A stretch of DNA of 64,000 bases from Rutstroemia sp. NJR-2017a BVV2 (Eukaryota; Ascomycota; Leotiomycetes; Helotiales; Rutstroemiaceae), in NCBI GenBank assembly GCA_002946415.1, contig NJPS01000051.1:1129133-1193132 (forward strand), in the 5' to 3' direction. The notes under the pieces were generated by a model, which was not told the DNA's origin, did no database searches, and saw only the letters and a list, made by a program, of their open reading frames with translations. A program made the translations under genes and the position numbers. Positions 41,097 to 49,373 of the stretch are shown one piece after another; position 1 is the first letter of the stretch; each line of letters begins with the position of its first letter.

Positions 41097-44000
41097 CTAC
41101 ACCTTTCCTAATACTTGCCTTGCAACCTCAATAGCTTCTTTCGGCAGTCCGGCTAATTTGGCTACTTTAAGTGCGTGACTATGTTTGTTGATACCCTGCC
41201 TCAATCTGTATCTGTACCTAAATACTCCGTTCTTGCTCTCATCTTCCTCTACGTCTGTGCAATAGAAGCCTACATCCTCCATGTGATACTCAGATATTAA
41301 GTCCGCTAATGCATGGAAATGCGTTGCAAACAGTGTCCTGCACTTGTTCACATGATAAAGGTGATGTAAACATGCGAATGCAACAGCAATTCCGTCTGCT
41401 GGTGTTGTTCCTCTTCCTATCTCGTCCATGATAACAAATGACCTTGACGTAGCGTTCTCGAGAATTGCAGCGCTCTCTAACATTTCAACCATGAACGTCG
41501 ACTGGTCCCGATACAAATCGTCCGCCGAGCCTACTCTACTGAATATGTGATCGACAATCCCCAGTTCTGCGTACTGTGCCGGCACGTATGATCCAACTTG
41601 AGCGAGAATTGTGATCAAGGCGTTTTGTCTGAGGAAGGTGCTCTTGCCTGCCATGTTTGGTCCCGTTATCATCCAAGCTCGGTCAACATCTCCTACAATG
41701 CAGTCATTGGATATGAAACTTCTACCCTCTTCCTCCAGTCCGCCCTCAACGGTCGGATGCCGTCCTCCGATGATTTTATGCGTTGAGCCAGTATTAAGGA
41801 TCGGACGAGTCCAGCCTCTTTCTTCAGCTAAAATGGCAAACGAACATGCGATATCAATCTCCTCGAGGACAGCGGCGTTGCGTCGGAGTTTAACGAGATT
41901 GGTAATAGCTTGCTCGCGAAGTGTATAGAAGAGGCGTTGTTCTTCTGCTCGAATATGGGTGCGGCATTGGTCGATTTCTTGACCGAGCGCTGACCACTCT
42001 GGATGATGGAGAGATCTGGTGCTTTTGCTAGAACTGATGGTTCGTGCTTCAGGAATCGAAAGGTTAATATCTCTGCCTTTCACATGACAAATATGACCGA
42101 GACCGGGTGTGAAGCGAAGAGTGAGACTTGCAACTCCTAGACGCTCACAGAGCGACGTTTCAAGAGTAGCTTTCTTCGCTGCAAAATCATTGAGCCTTTT
42201 ATGCAAACGCCGCAGAGTAGGGGTGGCTGTGGTTTTCATTGTCCAAGCTTCGTTTTCTTGATTGTAATATTCTCTTATGCTGTTGGGTGTCTTCTTACGG
42301 CTATTTTTTCGGAGTGTTGACGTGTCTTCAGAAGTTCCTTCCGAAGCAACAACAGCTTCTGCAAGTGCTTGCATTTCTCCGCTTTCAGCATCTTCTATTC
42401 GGTGTTGTTGTATCAACCCATCTTCATCTATAGCAGCAGTGATACTCTCCGCAAGAATCATAGGGTCTTCCAGCACTACTCGACGCAGTAATGCTTGGAC
42501 ACACGGATCGCCATAGCCATCTTGAGCCAGCAATTCGGCTAGGTCTCGTGTTGCATGTATGGTAGTGGCCAATGCTAAAAGGTCGTCAGCGTCTCCCCGC
42601 CCGAACGCGAACTTCTGCAGCAGGCGATGTGAATCGTGGCTTCTTTTGAGCAGGGTTGTGATTCGCTCTCGAAGTGATTCTTTGTTTAGCATGTATGTCA
42701 CCAAGTCCAATCGGGAGTTGATTACGTCGAGGGAAGTTGATGGGGAAGCTGTCCAATTGGTTAGACGGTACGATCTTCTCCTGCTCTTCTAAACACGCAC
42801 CTAACCAGTTCTCCAAAAGCCTTGCACCTCCTTTTGTAGCAGTTCGGCGAACAGTATGCAGCAAACTGCCACTGAAGTTATCTTCCCGGATGGTCTTCTT
42901 GATTTCTAGCGCTCTCATGGTATTCTTATCAATGCCCATAAGATCGAGTTGACGAACGGGTGGTTGGAGTTTCAGGTCGGAACCTTGTAAGCGGGTTCCA
43001 ATATAATAGAGTAAGCAGCTACCTGCAGCTATCTCTTGCTCTGTGAAATGGCCGGCAGCAGATGGGGGAACAGGAGACTCAAGCATTGCGCTCCATTCTT
43101 CTATTGATCTAACATCAGGCACTTCTGCATATGTTATGCGCTGTCTATCATCGCCAAATACGCCGAGGATATGGTTGTGAACCTCGAGTTTTTGGTCTAG
43201 CACTATCTCACGTGGGGATACGCGGGCAAGAAAAGATGGGATTTCTGTTACCGACACTTTTTGTGTAAAGAATTGCCCAGTTGATAGATCCAACCATGCC
43301 ACTCCTACGGAATTGTCATGATTAAGATCAGATGTTGAAGGTGTCAAAGCACCATCCTCAATATGGATTGCGAGGACATAATTGTTAGACAGAGGGTCCA
43401 TGAAGTTCTCATCAATCAGGGTACCAGGCGTAATGATTCGTGACACTCTCCGGTCATGCATCAATCCACCAGACTTTACCTTTGCAGACACATCGTTTGG
43501 ATACTCCTCGGAGATAGCAACATTCCGGTTCAAATCTTGGACAAGTATTTTTAGATAGCGATCAAGTTGGTGAAAGGGAAAACCGGCCTGTCGAATAGTG
43601 TCAGCAGCAATCCGCATGAGCCTGTGTCATAACGGCTCACCATAGAAACAGGCCCAGCATTGGTTTTCTTCTGGGAAACTTTCAAGCCCAGTGGAGGGCC
43701 AAACTCATCCGCATGGTCAAAATATAATTCATAGAATCCACCAACACGGGTGATGACTACACAGTTTTCAAAATTCTGCATGTTTTTGCGTGCTTGCATG
43801 ACCACAGTCGGATAAGATGGTGATTCATCCTCGAACTCCAGTGGCTCTAGTGAGATTAATCCTTGGTGGAGATTTTTAGCAGATCCATCAGACTTCTTAG
43901 CCAGTTCTTTAGGTTCTGGAGTGAGGGGGGTGACATTAGGTATCAAAGATTCTGGCTTGTCGAGATCAATTAAACCTTGAGATAGACTTTCTAGGCGGAC

Positions 44001-44474
44001 AGATGAAACCTTTCGTGTTCGCTTTGCTTTCTGGATCTCTTCGCTTTCCACTGGTTGTTGCAAGTCATTTTTGGACAGACCATCTAGGGAGCCCGGCTCC
44101 AACGAATGAGGAGCTCTAACAATGTACAATGTATCTTCGACATGCTCGGAAGAAGTTACTGAGGTGTCGATTGGCCCAGCTTTGATCTCATCGCGTTGTT
44201 CATCTGGGCATGATGGTTTGGCTGGTCTAAAATTCGAGCCATGCAACAGATCGTCAAAGGAAACTGACGACTTCGTCTTTTTCCACCTCCGCTGTTGACC
44301 TGGACCTGTAGGAAAATCGCGTGTGGGTGAAAAGTGAGTGGCCGGACGACAAACGGATAGCAGAGGAAGCGAGCGTGAGGGTGCAGCGCAACACGTGTTT
44401 TGTCTGATCGTGGTCGAGAGAACAGAACTGTGTATGCGAAAGCCTCCTATACTTTGGGTGTTAAGGAATGACAT
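41097..44474 (-). CDS. MSH1: Mitochondrial DNA mismatch repair protein, MutS homologue 1
   Basis: Exons 44474-43641, 43587-42801 and 42748-41097 give 1,090 residues. The N-terminus (MSFLNTQSIGGFRIHSSVLS) is basic and Ser/Thr-rich, suiting mitochondrial import. The mismatch-recognition domain begins near NCVVITRVGGFYELYFDHAD, with the Phe-Tyr-Glu motif typical of MutS/MSH1. The ATPase has Walker A GPNMAGKST (near residue 905), Walker B SFVIMDEIGRGTTPADG and TLFATHFHAL. A long low-complexity insert (about residues 90-220) precedes the recognition domain. I kept the upstream GTG-initiated extension out because ATG at 44474 gives a good presequence. It acts in mitochondrial DNA maintenance. Confidence 0.94.
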
Positions 44475-44886
44475 TGATTGGTATGGGCAGTACGTCGACG
44501 TCAACACCAAGGCGCTGCACTTCTTCACCTGGTGAGTGCTTTGGGAGAGTTCTCTGTTTTTCGTAGTGGGGCCGACAAAGCTCGAATTGAGGCGCCCATG
44601 CTAACTCGTTACGGTTAGTAGCTAGGGGTCGATTGATTTCCAAATGATGACTAACTTGCTCGTGACAAAGATATTATATATGATCAGCAAATCGCCCATT
44701 GATGAGTGCTGATTGGTTCTCTCCGTATTTCTAGATGATCAAGCACTTATCAATCAACAGCTCAAACTTTGTGATCAAGCTTTACTACTGGGTAAACGCA
44801 CCCTGCTGTTGCGGTATGAGCGCTACTACGGCGACCAGACGTGGTGATGAACGAGCTATTGAGCTGATGCGCTGATGAGGTAGAAC

Positions 44887-44893: not shown

Positions 44894-45161
44894 TGCTCAA
44901 ATGCTGTGTCTGCATTTCGTAATCACGGCTAATCGCAGGTGGAGAGCGGATGGAGCAGCCCGAATGGTCGGAAAGCGAGGGAAAGAGGGAAAGAGACCGT
45001 GTTCGTGTCATGCAATCCGCAAAAGGGTCCCCCCCATCTTCCCCAAAACCCTGCACATACTGCAGCATGATGCAGACTAGTCCTGTACCTACTGAGTAGT
45101 CTCAATACTTGCCCCGCGTCAACCTGCCCAAGTCAATTTCCTAGAAGCGGATAGAAAACGA

Positions 45162-45169
45162 TATATAAG
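45162..45169 (+). promoter_or_regulatory. TATA box of the flavodoxin-like gene
   Basis: TATATAAG stands alone in GC-balanced DNA 148 bp upstream of the start codon, followed by a C/T-rich initiator and leader. A strong TATA box suits a stress-inducible gene. Confidence 0.55.
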
Positions 45170-45316
45170 AGCAACAAACCCGTCCGTTCTGTTCATTCTG
45201 TTCTCTTTTTGATATTCACCTACTCACTCACTCTTCACTCCACGCTCCTCGGTCCCTACCATCTTCTGATCACCCCAGCTCATTCTCTCCCACTCAACCA
45301 CCCACAGTAATACAAA

Positions 45317-46373
45317 ATGGCCCCCAAAGTCGCTATCGTCTTTGTATGTTAACTGCACTTCCCTCAAACCCCACCCTTCTCATGACCATATGAGAATGTG
45401 GCACCGTGCTGTTCGCTTGTGTTTCGCACGCAGACCAACACAACGCTACGCATCTATCTTTTTCAAACCCTTTGCAAGACCTCATAATCAGCAGGCTAAT
45501 CTCCATAATCTTCACAGTACTCCATGTATGGCCACATCCAAAAGCTTGCTGAAGCTGAGAAGGAAGGTCTTAAGAAAGCCGGTATTGATGCCGATCTTTA
45601 TCAGTACGTCTTTACATTATCCTGCCTACATCTGACTCGAAGTCCAAACCTTGTTCGTCCTATATTTTATGTACAAACTCCTGACCCGTCGCAGAGTTCC
45701 TGAGACACTTCCCGAAGAGGTTTTGGCCAAGGTATGCAACACATTCGGTGAGATAAAAATGCAGGAATTAACAGAAAGATAGATGCATGCCCCGCCAAAG
45801 AACGCAGACATTCCGGTGATCGATGCCAAGACCCTCGAGAAATATGTAGGTGTCCCACCGCAGCTTTTCCATCTGCTACTGCAATCGTCAACACGTGACT
45901 GACAATGAAACAATAGGACGCATTCCTCTTCGGTGTGCCAACCCGTTATGGTAACTTCCCTGCCCAATGGAAGGCTTTCTGGGACACCACCGGTGGTCAA
46001 TGGGCCTCGGGTGCCTACTGGGGCAAGTATGCCGGTATCTTCGTCTCCACTGGTACCCCAGGTGGCGGACAAGAGAGCACTGCCATTGCCGCCATGTCGA
46101 CGTTGACTCATCACGGTATCATCTACGTCCCATTGGGATACAAGACCGCCTTTGCACAGCTTGCCAACCTTTCCGAGGTCCGCGGTGGCTCGCCATGGGG
46201 TGCTGGAACTTTTGCTGTAAGCACCTGACCACCAATTATTCATCTCACGTCCCCAGCTGATATTCCGATAGGGACCCGACGGCTCCCGTCAACCAAGTAC
46301 TCTCGAGTTGGAAATTGCCCTTGCCCAAGGTGAAGCATTCGGTAATGCTATCTCCAAGGTCAACTTTGCTTGA
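45317..46373 (+). CDS. Flavodoxin-like NAD(P)H:quinone oxidoreductase (Alt a 7 / Pst2 / Ycp4 / WrbA family)
   Basis: Exons 45317-45343, 45518-45603, 45695-45731, 45783-45845, 45917-46216 and 46272-46373 give 204 residues, the length of fungal family members such as the allergen Alt a 7. Features are KVAIVFYSMYGHI (FMN phosphate loop region), [34 protein letters not shown] and [20 protein letters not shown]. The enzyme uses FMN for two-electron reduction of quinones, limiting oxidative damage; yeast homologues sit at eisosomes. The stop is TGA followed by CTAG, with an intron and a further in-frame ORF right behind it (see the read-through extension entry). A Yap1-type site and TATA box lie upstream. 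Confidence 0.95.
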
Positions 46374-46588
46374 CTAGATGTAAGTGGCCCCCAATGTGTC
46401 ACACATCAGTAGGGCTTTCTAACTTCCATTAATAGGGACCGTCAGAGTCGGTTAAGAGTGGAGCGAAGGCAGAGGTAACGCCGACGAAGAAGAACGGAAC
46501 AGGAAATACCCAAAGAGCGGAGACTAAACAACCGGATGAAGACAAGGAAGGACCTTGTGGTCTGCCTACCAAGTGTACTATCTTATAA
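46371..46588 (+). other. Candidate read-through extension of the flavodoxin-like protein ending in a CaaX box
   Basis: The TGA stop at 46371-46373 is followed by CTAGAT, then a canonical intron 46380-46435 (GTAAGT, CTAAC, AATAG; 56 nt). This intron is in phase 0 relative to the upstream frame, and after it 50 codons stay open to TAA at 46586-46588. The extension is Lys/Gly/Glu-rich, like a flexible linker, and ends GPCGLPTKCTIL. CTIL fits a CaaX box (Leu favours geranylgeranylation) with a second Cys seven residues upstream that could be palmitoylated. UGA-CUA is a known leaky stop context in fungi and animals. An alternative is splicing from the weaker GTCAAC donor at 46359, which also reaches GGACCG in phase 0 and bypasses the stop. 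Either way a second, membrane-anchored isoform (~257 residues by read-through) is predicted. Confidence 0.6.
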
Positions 46589-48121
46589 CCTTGGACCATC
46601 CATACATCAAAAATAATTAATCCATGATGGAACAGCTATCCATTATTGAATATCCACACAACCTGAACTGATGCGAACATCAGCCCTGCACTACTATTAC
46701 GCTGCAATGTCCGGCCAGAACGATCCATCGGTCTGATGACGTCCTGGTTGAAAAGCGCCACTGTGTAGTAGCACCGTTGCCCTATTCAAATCTCTGCCTG
46801 CAACGGCCAGTAAATTGACCACGTGCATGCCTATGGCATTTTGAAAATCGAGTGTGCAAGCCTCTCCGCTCAAATTCGTCTTTTTCTCCTGTCGTCGCCT
46901 TTCCCGTACCCTCTTCTGGGTTTCAAAAAGTCTTCGTGTTCTTAACATCCATATTCTATAAGGACAGTTCGGATATCACCATGTTCTATTCTCAAGTTGA
47001 AGTATAGGTCCCATAAAAAGACCCCTTGTTTTGGATACACAGGCATGAGACAAATGATATTCAGAAGTTTCACGGACACTTGCGCCCTGCTAGGCCCAGG
47101 TTCTTCGACAAGCTAGTAGTATTCGAAGTCGTTGACCCGTGAAGGACACTGTTGGTTCACAGTTCAGATGTTCGTGGTAACTATAGGTGAACCCGCTGTA
47201 GGGACAACAATAAGTTACAGGGGTAGTGAGCTCTCATCATAACATGATGAGTTATAATTTGCGATTATATGAGGCTTGAGGATGGTCAAGTTTTCCGGTA
47301 GTCCTAGAAGCCGGAGAGGCAACAAATCTCAGGTGTGTCAGCCGATTAGACCCCGTTGCCTCTGTGGTACAGCTTCAAGCTAGAATGCCCAAAGTAGCAC
47401 ACAACGTTTTAAGATTGCTCGCTAGGTGAGATTCGTTGTAGGTTACCAAAACCCGATTGTAATCGAGAGAATGCCCAAACGCGACGTAGATAGTGAGAAG
47501 GGAAGAGTTCTGGGGAGGCACAGAATCACCTAGAGAGCAGACGGATACGAATGGAGCGGTCAGAATTGTAAAATAAGAACTATGAGTTCGGCTTATGTGT
47601 GCGTTGATAATTTTATAGTAAGCCATAGGAACTCACTTATTGCCTTTTGTCCACTGTCCGGCTTTCGGAGCTTTGCGAAGGCCGAAGGGAATGATGAGGC
47701 CCTGTCAATATATTTCCAATCAATAGCATTTCCAATTCGATGACATTTTCTTCGTTGTTCGCGTCTTTCGTAGCCCGCAAACACCGCGGAGATGAAGTAG
47801 CACCCGACTATGAATCAGCCAATCATATCGCATTGCTCATGCAGCTTGCTTACAATGCGCAGTGGCTTCCCGGACTGCGAACTTCAAAGCATTAATGCGG
47901 GGTTGAGACAAAAGTAAGATACGGTTCCGGTATACAAGAATTCTTTCAAGAGAACAAACAGTATAAATAGCCTTTTGCAGCGTGCCTTCCCAGGTCCTAA
48001 AGCGCCCATCCTAATCTATTCGACTCCAGTCTTTCTTCACGGGAACCATTACACTCAATAATTGACACTCAGTTTATACACAGAATCAGCTTGCCATTTC
48101 TCCTCCACCTCTTCGAAAAAC
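46589..48121. other. Intergenic
   Basis: About 1.5 kb between two + strand genes. Short minus-strand open frames (for example 46697-46948) have no family features. No RNA gene was recognised. The last 60 bp is the leader of the NmrA-like gene. Confidence 0.4.
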
Positions 48122-49373
48122 ATGGCATCTAAAAAGCTCCTCGTTGTTTTTGGGGCTACGGGAGTCCAGGGTGGCTCTGTAGTTAAATCTATACTAGGTG
48201 ATCCGAATATGAGAGCGCAATGGACCGTCAGAGGCATCACCCGAGACGTCACAAAGCCATCGGCGAAGGAACTTGAGGCGCTTGGTGCGGAGACGGCAGC
48301 TGTCAGAATTTGCCCAATACCCAATACTTCTAAGGCAAATGCAGCTAACAGCTCTTCAAGGCAAATCTGAACGACCCATCCAGTCTCAAATCAGCGTTGA
48401 AGGGAGCGTATGCTGTGTACGCAGTCACCAATTTCTGGGAAAGCCAAAGTGCAGAGGTTGAGAAGGCACAGGGAACCGCAATTGCGGATGCCGCCAAGGT
48501 AATGAGCTCAAATATTAGAATACCATTCAGTTCTTGCTTAACAAGTCATGATTACTAGGAAGCTGGTGTACAACACTTCATCTGGAGCTCCTTGTTGAAC
48601 ATCACAGAGCGTAAGTCGACATTCTAACCTGATGTGACGCCCCATACTAACTCCGTCCTGTCCAGTCAGTAAAGGAGCGTTGCCAATGGTCACTCATTTT
48701 GATTCCAAAGCCGACGTCGAGGTATATATTCGGAAGATTGGCATCCCAGCGACATTCTTCCTTGCCGGGTTTTATATGTCAAACATTCCGGGATCAAACC
48801 TAGCTCGAATGCCTCCAGATCAGAAATGGAAGCTCGCGTTTCCTATTCCAGCTTCAGCTCCAGTCCCGCTCTTTGATGCAGGTAAACATGGCTGCGGATT
48901 GAATTCTGTGAATTTAAAACAGACTAACTAACTATTGTGTAGCCAACGACACCGGGAAATTTGTTAAAGGCATCCTGATCAATCGAGAAAAACTTCTTGG
49001 AAAGAGAGTGTACGGTGCCACAGAGTATCTGACCTTGACTGAGATATTGAATCAGTTCAAGGAGCTGTATCCAATTGCCGGCGAGGGTGCTGAGACGGTT
49101 GAGCTCCCGCACGATGTGTATAAAGCCACTCTCGGAAAGTATGGCATGTCTGAGGAGGCGCAAGAGGAACTTTTGCAAAACATGAGATTGCTGGCCGAGT
49201 TTGGATATTACGGGGGAGATTCTTTGGATGAGAGTCACTCGGTGAGTACAAATGGTGTGAACAGAAGATGTTGGGGAATTGGATGCTGATTGTAGAACTA
49301 GATCCTGGTCGACAAATTGACAACTTGGAAAGAATTCATGTCAAAGGCGCCGGCCTTGGCTGACTTGAAGTAG
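48122..49373 (+). CDS. NmrA-like NAD(P)-binding protein
   Basis: Exons 48122-48301, 48361-48498, 48559-48610, 48666-48881, 48943-49241 and 49302-49373 give 318 residues. It has the NmrA-type Rossmann motif [18 protein letters not shown] (GxxGxxG), then [23 protein letters not shown], a C-terminal [20 protein letters not shown] and [12 protein letters not shown]. Family members sense NAD(P) or regulate GATA factors; others act as atypical reductases. The role is unknown here. Intron 1 has a weak GTCAGA donor. Intron 5 offers two AGs six bases apart: the first leads at once to a stop, so the second is used in this model. Confidence 0.88.

What the first reader, a model, noticed from the sequence alone, without database searches (positions are those of the whole stretch)
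46371..46588. Stop-codon read-through plus a phase-0 intron predicts a prenylated isoform of a flavodoxin-like quinone reductase
Seen: the 204-residue ORF ends in TGA followed by CTAG. The sixth base after the TGA is followed by GTAAGT, a 56-nt intron with CTAAC and AATAG, placed in phase 0 to the upstream frame. The next 50 codons stay open and end in KCTIL. Known: UGA-CUA is a leaky stop context that yields dual-localised enzymes in fungi and animals; C-terminal C-a-a-Leu is a geranylgeranylation signal; yeast Pst2/Rfs1/Ycp4 relatives are found at plasma-membrane eisosomes. Inference: a minority of translation gives a lipid-anchored form, placing quinone reductase activity at the membrane. 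The stop is only 6 nt before the exon junction, so nonsense-mediated decay would not be triggered. A competing route is alternative splicing from the GTCAAC donor at 46359, also in phase 0.
Basis: partly seen in the sequence, partly recalled or inferred. Interest (0 to 1): 0.87.

Follow-up and report, generated by a model that had tools for sequence, protein, structure and literature searches.

The report
Hidden lipid-anchor tail behind leaky stop
A fungal quinone-reductase gene carries, behind a leaky stop codon and a small intron, a conserved membrane-anchoring tail, so one gene probably makes both a soluble and a membrane-bound form of the same protective enzyme.

Summary
A six-exon Pst2/WrbA-type gene (204 aa) ends TGA CTA G. 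Six bases after the stop lies a 56-nt phase-0 intron, then 50 open codons ending GPCGLPTKCTIL. The extension is real and old: 69 of 188 fetched homologues carry the tail, from species named in several classes of Pezizomycotina. In 67 gap-free tails both cysteines are invariant. Yeast Ycp4 is comparable: a CaaX box is reported in C. albicans, palmitoylation in S. cerevisiae (papers). A search of this genome found no second Pst2/Ycp4 gene. Three unnamed environmental proteins carry W at the short-form stop followed by L-D or L-A; in two of them TGA was almost certainly translated as W, compatible with a kept UGA-CUN-G. The 66 annotated long forms have no such residue; 40 continue directly after ...SK/AK/LK, either by a real alternative donor, by a predictor's work-around (one implies a 39-nt intron), or because the stop is absent there. 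None of 83 environmental records is such a form. Best reading: a soluble main form plus a minor lipid-anchored form by read-through, splicing possibly contributing. Read-through was not measured.

The parts
45317..46373 (+). Main gene, six exons, 204-aa Pst2/WrbA-type NAD(P)H:quinone oxidoreductase; five introns (45344-45517, 45604-45694, 45732-45782, 45846-45916, 46217-46271)
   Evidence: joined exons open, five GTA...AG introns; 5mp4 Pst2 E 5.2e-78; TIGR01755 215.2 bits, cut-off 132.5
46371..46377 (+). Stop codon in the leaky context TGA CTA G
   Evidence: motif tested in U. maydis in PMC4207609
46359..46364 (+). Possible alternative 5' splice site GTCAAC (phase 0), would skip the TGA
   Evidence: junction ISK|GPSEP in annotated P0001; unlike the gene's own five donors, which all begin GTA
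46380..46435 (+). 56-nt intron just behind the stop, phase 0 to the upstream frame
   Evidence: sequence features only; no RNA evidence for this genome
46436..46588 (+). Hidden C-terminal exon: 50 codons plus TAA; linker and lipidation tail
   Evidence: 43 of 50 residues identical to P0001
46550..46585 (+). Conserved tail GPCGLPTKCTIL: CaaX box and upstream invariant Cys
   Evidence: 67 gap-free tails

Best explanation
One gene does the work that yeasts divide between PST2 and YCP4. Most ribosomes stop at UGA and make a 204-aa soluble quinone reductase. The 56-nt intron behind the stop is spliced out, and a minority of ribosomes decode the leaky UGA (CUA G), adding a disordered linker of about 40 residues and the tail EGPCGLPTKCTIL (257 aa in all). 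CaaX prenylation, and probably palmitoylation of the upstream Cys, would hold this form at a membrane, plausibly at eisosomes. The AAG|GTCAAC donor may supply part of the long form (250 aa). Shown here: anatomy, frame, conservation of the tail, no second gene found. Inferred: splicing in this species, decoding of the UGA, lipidation, location and function.
For: Anatomy. Tail in 69 of 188 fetched homologues, both Cys invariant in 67 gap-free tails. Environmental proteins P0030 and P0127 carry W at the short-form stop and again right after the CaaX box, so TGA was translated as W in both, and the next residues are L-D and L-A, compatible with CUN-G; P0142 has A-W-L-D-G at the same place. P0030 has a complete N-terminus, so it is probably spliced RNA that kept the TGA. 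P0127 has an intron-like stretch inside its frame, so it is probably genomic, with no intron between stop and tail; P0019, identical to it in 102 of 102 core and 53 of 54 tail residues, lacks exactly the 13 residues VNFAWLAEGSAKE (39 nt). 0 of 83 environmental records of 300 aa or less is a spliced long form, 78 are short, and 67 of those 78 begin like complete spliced mRNAs. No second Pst2/Ycp4 gene found in the genome. UGA CUA suffices for read-through in U. maydis (PMC4207609).
Against: No read-through product was measured. The base before the stop is U, linked to lower read-through in mammalian cells (PMC12233894). No stable RNA structure behind the stop (z -0.66). Codon usage gives no signal. 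Only two or three records show the TGA, all unnamed, and their DNA was not seen; the W of P0142 may be TGG. The 66 annotated long forms have no residue at that stop, and the K/R/Q-V pattern fits a conserved donor.
Confidence: 0.6

Rival explanations
1. Alternative 5' splice sites alone make the two forms. The near donor (46380) leaves the TGA in and gives the short protein; the far donor (46359, AAG|GTCAAC) removes it and gives a 250-aa prenylated protein. The leaky context is coincidence.
For: P0001 joins ISK|GPSEP exactly so; 40 of 66 annotated long forms continue after ...SK/AK/LK with a residue other than V; V is kept in 91 of 96 short forms and is preceded by K, R or Q in 88 of them.
Against: GTCAAC is unlike the gene's five donors, all GTA. 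0 of 83 environmental records is spliced in this way. Of 96 short forms 5 have I, A or L instead of V, so no GT there. The annotated long form P0003 keeps KINFA, and P0144 keeps KVSF. The P0019 model implies a 39-nt intron. I did not see what RNA support, if any, the models have.
Confidence: 0.28
2. Only the short form is made now; the extension is a relic in the 3' untranslated region.
For: The related C. jacksonii is annotated with short forms only among the proteins fetched (P0004 and 'variant 2' P0018); codon usage gives no signal.
Against: The frame is kept without a gap against P0001 (43 of 50), the last 17 residues are identical, and phase and CaaX are intact; a relic would decay.
Confidence: 0.06
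3. The TGA is a sequencing or assembly error (for TGG), and the gene always makes the long form.
For: TGG differs from TGA by one base; P0142 may have TGG.
Against: Short forms ending at about this place are 97 of 188 fetched homologues, among them C. jacksonii from another assembly.
Confidence: 0.02

Closest known systems
Functional read-through at UGA CUA (G) giving cryptic peroxisomal isoforms (Ustilago maydis Tpi1, Art1, Rpe1; PMC4207609)
   Same: Same stop context; metabolic enzyme with a hidden C-terminal targeting signal; kept across species
   Different: Signal is a CaaX tail, not PTS1; about 50 residues long; an intron lies between stop and signal; no reporter data here
Cryptic peroxisomal isoforms by alternative splicing or read-through in fungi (Freitag 2012, seen only as cited in PMC4973966 and PMC4359377)
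   Same: The same signal attached by read-through in some species and by splicing in others
   Different: Peroxisome, not lipid anchor
Yeast Pst2 and Ycp4 flavodoxin-like quinone reductases (PMC4556627, PMC7943015, PMC5364179)
   Same: Same enzyme family; Ycp4 has a C-terminal addition, ending in CaaX in C. albicans, and is palmitoylated in S. cerevisiae
   Different: Two separate genes there; one gene with two ends here
Drosophila Syx17 read-through extension with a predicted farnesylation signal (PMC3840789, passages)
   Same: A predicted prenylation signal behind a stop codon
   Different: Unrelated protein and organism; a prediction in a genome-wide list

Membership tests
NAD(P)H:quinone oxidoreductase type IV (WrbA/Pst2) | Score above the curated cut-off of TIGR01755 over most of the protein | tested here: met
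   215.2 bits, cut-off 132.5, residues 4-196 of 204; Pst2 5mp4 E 5.2e-78
NAD(P)H:quinone oxidoreductase type IV (WrbA/Pst2) | FMN-dependent quinone reduction | not testable with these tools
   needs an enzyme assay
Functional translational read-through | High read-through stop context | tested here: met
   TGA CTA G at 46371; motif from PMC4207609 and PMC12233894
Functional translational read-through | In-frame extension with a conserved functional signal | tested here: met
   CaaX tail; reached only after splicing
Functional translational read-through | Stop context conserved in relatives | tested here: inconclusive
   W-L-D or W-L-A in 3 environmental proteins; DNA of relatives not available
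Functional translational read-through | Extended protein detected | not testable with these tools
   no ribosome or peptide data
CaaX-prenylated protein | Cys fourth from the end, conserved | tested here: met
   CTIL; Cys in 67 of 67 gap-free tails; one further record, P0163, labelled partial, lacks the end
CaaX-prenylated protein | Prenyl group attached | not testable with these tools
   needs labelling or mass spectrometry
Alternative 5' splicing | Second donor in phase and used in RNA | tested here: inconclusive
   GT in phase at 46359 but weak; used by the annotated model P0001; 0 of 83 environmental records show it

The most novel reading that the evidence does not exclude
Across Pezizomycotina one Pst2/Ycp4 gene yields a soluble and a dually lipidated quinone reductase. 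In Helotiales the ratio is set by read-through of a conserved UGA-CUA-G; elsewhere the same tail is attached by splicing, as with cryptic peroxisomal signals. This would be a fungal case in which read-through hides a lipid anchor, standing in for the yeast PST2/YCP4 gene pair, and the membrane form could rise whenever termination becomes less efficient.
Probability: 0.5. Interest if true: 0.78.

Novelty: new variant of a known kind. Interest (0 to 1): 0.63.

Why it matters
The fungal cases of hidden targeting by read-through that I met in the papers read carry peroxisomal signals. A conserved lipid tail behind the same leaky context would extend the principle to membranes. It would explain how a fungus without a separate YCP4 gene could place a quinone reductase at the membrane, where it may protect lipids from oxidation. 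It also warns that long gene models in databases may be work-arounds that splice over a recoded stop.

Tried and rejected
Chance frame or sequence error: judged unlikely (0.03% of model sequences open and CaaX-ended; conservation). Downstream RNA element: none seen (fold z -0.66; 0 Rfam matches at gathering score in 45000-47500). Coding statistics: uninformative. Search with the C-terminal part alone: 1 protein, P0001, of 4 candidates. DNA of relatives: a degenerate pattern for the tail gave 1 match in genome contigs, in a Rhodospirillaceae MAG (L011; not read, taken as chance), and 0 in viral contigs. Paralogues: PF03358 gave five matches in the own genome, one of them this gene. Of the other three places, L001 (C58) and L003 (C65) were read whole and L002 (C28) in part as DNA; L004 (C65, overlapping L003) was not read separately. 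By eye they are other FMN reductases, not tested further. A fold search against PDB was not run; the sequence match sufficed. Literature searches (listings seen): read-through with Alt a 7, 0 papers; with flavodoxin and prenyl, 0; with alternative splicing and CaaX, 2; translational read-through with prenylation and fungi, 6; flavodoxin-like with CaaX and fungi, 2; read-through with ribosome profiling and filamentous fungi, 8; a mixed search, 105 with 15 listed. I saw no title or abstract start in these listings that describes this case. The library holds open-licence papers only.

Full report
Observation. The intron length is not a multiple of three, and unspliced read-through stops after 12 codons. 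The intron therefore matters for coding only if translation goes past the TGA.

The gene. The 204-aa product is a type IV NAD(P)H:quinone oxidoreductase (TIGR01755) close to yeast Pst2 (PDB 5mp4). Close proteins are from Rutstroemia (P0001, 198 of 200 core residues identical) and Clarireedia jacksonii (P0004, 197 of 204), so the window is probably from a rutstroemiaceous Helotiales fungus (my inference). The genome G000 is 43.4 Mb in 79 contigs. A protein search of it gave 5 matches, all in this gene, one of them the extension. No separate Ycp4-like gene was found at that sensitivity.

The extension is real. Two protein searches listed their best 120 of 7416 and 5769 passing proteins, 188 different ones in all; a third returned only P0001. 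A script sorted the 188 by C-terminus (the source classes were typed by hand from the two tables): 69 with the tail (66 annotated, 3 environmental), 97 short forms (19 annotated, 78 environmental), 18 longer than 300 aa, 4 others. Of the 69, P0163 (labelled partial) lacks the CaaX end, and P0143 has a one-residue gap; 67 align without a gap. In these 67 the residues G, first Cys, G, L, P and the CaaX Cys are invariant, P is 66 of 67, and X is L 31, Q 23, M 10, S 2, V 1. The linker varies widely. Names on these records include Penicillium, Aspergillus, Fusarium, Colletotrichum, Alternaria, Pyrenophora, Podospora, Botrytis and Sclerotinia. In an AlphaFold2 model of P0001 (33-row alignment, mean pLDDT 71.2) the last helix is 181-199, and residues 203-239 and 246-250 lie below pLDDT 50, as expected of a flexible tether.

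How the tail is reached. Three environmental proteins span the stop. P0030 reads KVNFA-W-LDGSSS...KCAVL-W. P0127 reads ILKVNFA-W-LAEGSAKE-APAAAKA...KCTIL-WK. P0142 reads KAHGA-W-LDGSAAE...KCDIM. The second W right after the CaaX box in P0030 and P0127 indicates that their caller read TGA as W; the first W is then TGA too, followed by Leu and by Asp or Ala, which is compatible with UGA CUA G. For P0142 TGG cannot be excluded. P0030 has a complete N-terminus and is probably spliced RNA. P0127 contains a stretch (...SINWQLLTHLQW) that I read as an unspliced intron with a CTAAC branch, so it is probably genomic, with no intron between stop and tail. The Halenospora model P0019 agrees with it in 102 of 102 core and 53 of 54 tail residues but lacks exactly VNFAWLAEGSAKE, 13 residues or 39 nt, which looks like a predictor's work-around.

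Splicing or read-through. For splicing: P0001 joins ISK|GPSEP; 40 of 66 annotated long forms continue after ...SK/AK/LK with a residue other than V, 5 with V, 2 keep KVxF or KIxF, 19 are otherwise; V is kept in 91 of 96 short forms, with K, R or Q before it in 88 (5 of 101 records without the tail did not fit the pattern and were left out). Species outside Helotiales may simply lack the stop. For read-through: the motif, P0030, P0127, the weak donor, and 0 of 83 environmental records of 300 aa or less as spliced long forms (78 short, 3 with W, 2 others), although the profile favours long forms; 67 of the 78 short ones begin like complete mRNAs. Assemblies favour the main isoform and unspliced contigs cannot show splicing, so a minor spliced form is not excluded. 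I give read-through at least a share at 0.6 and splicing alone 0.28.

Background, by paper. PMC4207609 (passages and one section): UGA CUA suffices for read-through in U. maydis, UGA CU is the core, UGA CUA (G) is suggested as an extended motif; the terms intron, prenyl and caax do not occur in its main text. PMC12233894 (passages): U before the stop goes with lower read-through in mammalian cells. PMC4973966 and PMC4359377 (passages): cryptic PTS1 by read-through or splicing in fungi. PMC3840789 (passages): one Drosophila extension with a predicted prenylation signal, Syx17. PMC4556627 (one passage): C. albicans Ycp4 ends in CaaX after an extension of about 90 residues. PMC7943015 (passages): Ycp4 palmitoylated in S. 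cerevisiae, 49 additional residues; GFP fusions of Pst2, Rfs1 and Ycp4 reported at eisosomes. PMC5364179 (one passage): Ycp4 listed as an Erf2 substrate. PMC5753163 (passages): eisosome list, antioxidant role. The prenyl-transferase preferences for X and the 50-nt rule of nonsense-mediated decay are recalled, not from a call.

Verdict. The anatomy is confirmed, and the hidden CaaX tail is a real, conserved feature. Read-through is the best but unproven route. It is a new variant of a known kind, functional read-through, not a new mechanism.

Noticed in passing
P0186 (environmental protein, one search set): A short form ending ...VAKVNHQ resembles the start of the Penicillium long forms (VSKVNHHTESK, VAKVNHH); it may run into an intron beginning at CA|GTAA, i.e. 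the tail may be attached by ordinary splicing there. DNA not seen.
   Followed up: no
P0023 (Lachnellula hyalina model): Its C-terminus (RSRDHVDCLPSAQYYKHML) looks like the conserved tail read in another frame, i.e. a faulty gene model.
   Followed up: no
P0002 (Gymnopilus dilepis), P0011 and P0012 (Symbiodinium), P0005-P0010 (environmental): Homologues of 414-447 aa, about twice the usual length; P0002, the only one of these read, carries two flavodoxin-like copies in tandem.
   Followed up: no
window 43551-44528 (-) and 48062-48370 (+): Neighbouring reading frames: one that looks like a mitochondrial MutS (MSH1) exon and one like an NmrA-type regulator, by eye only.
   Followed up: no
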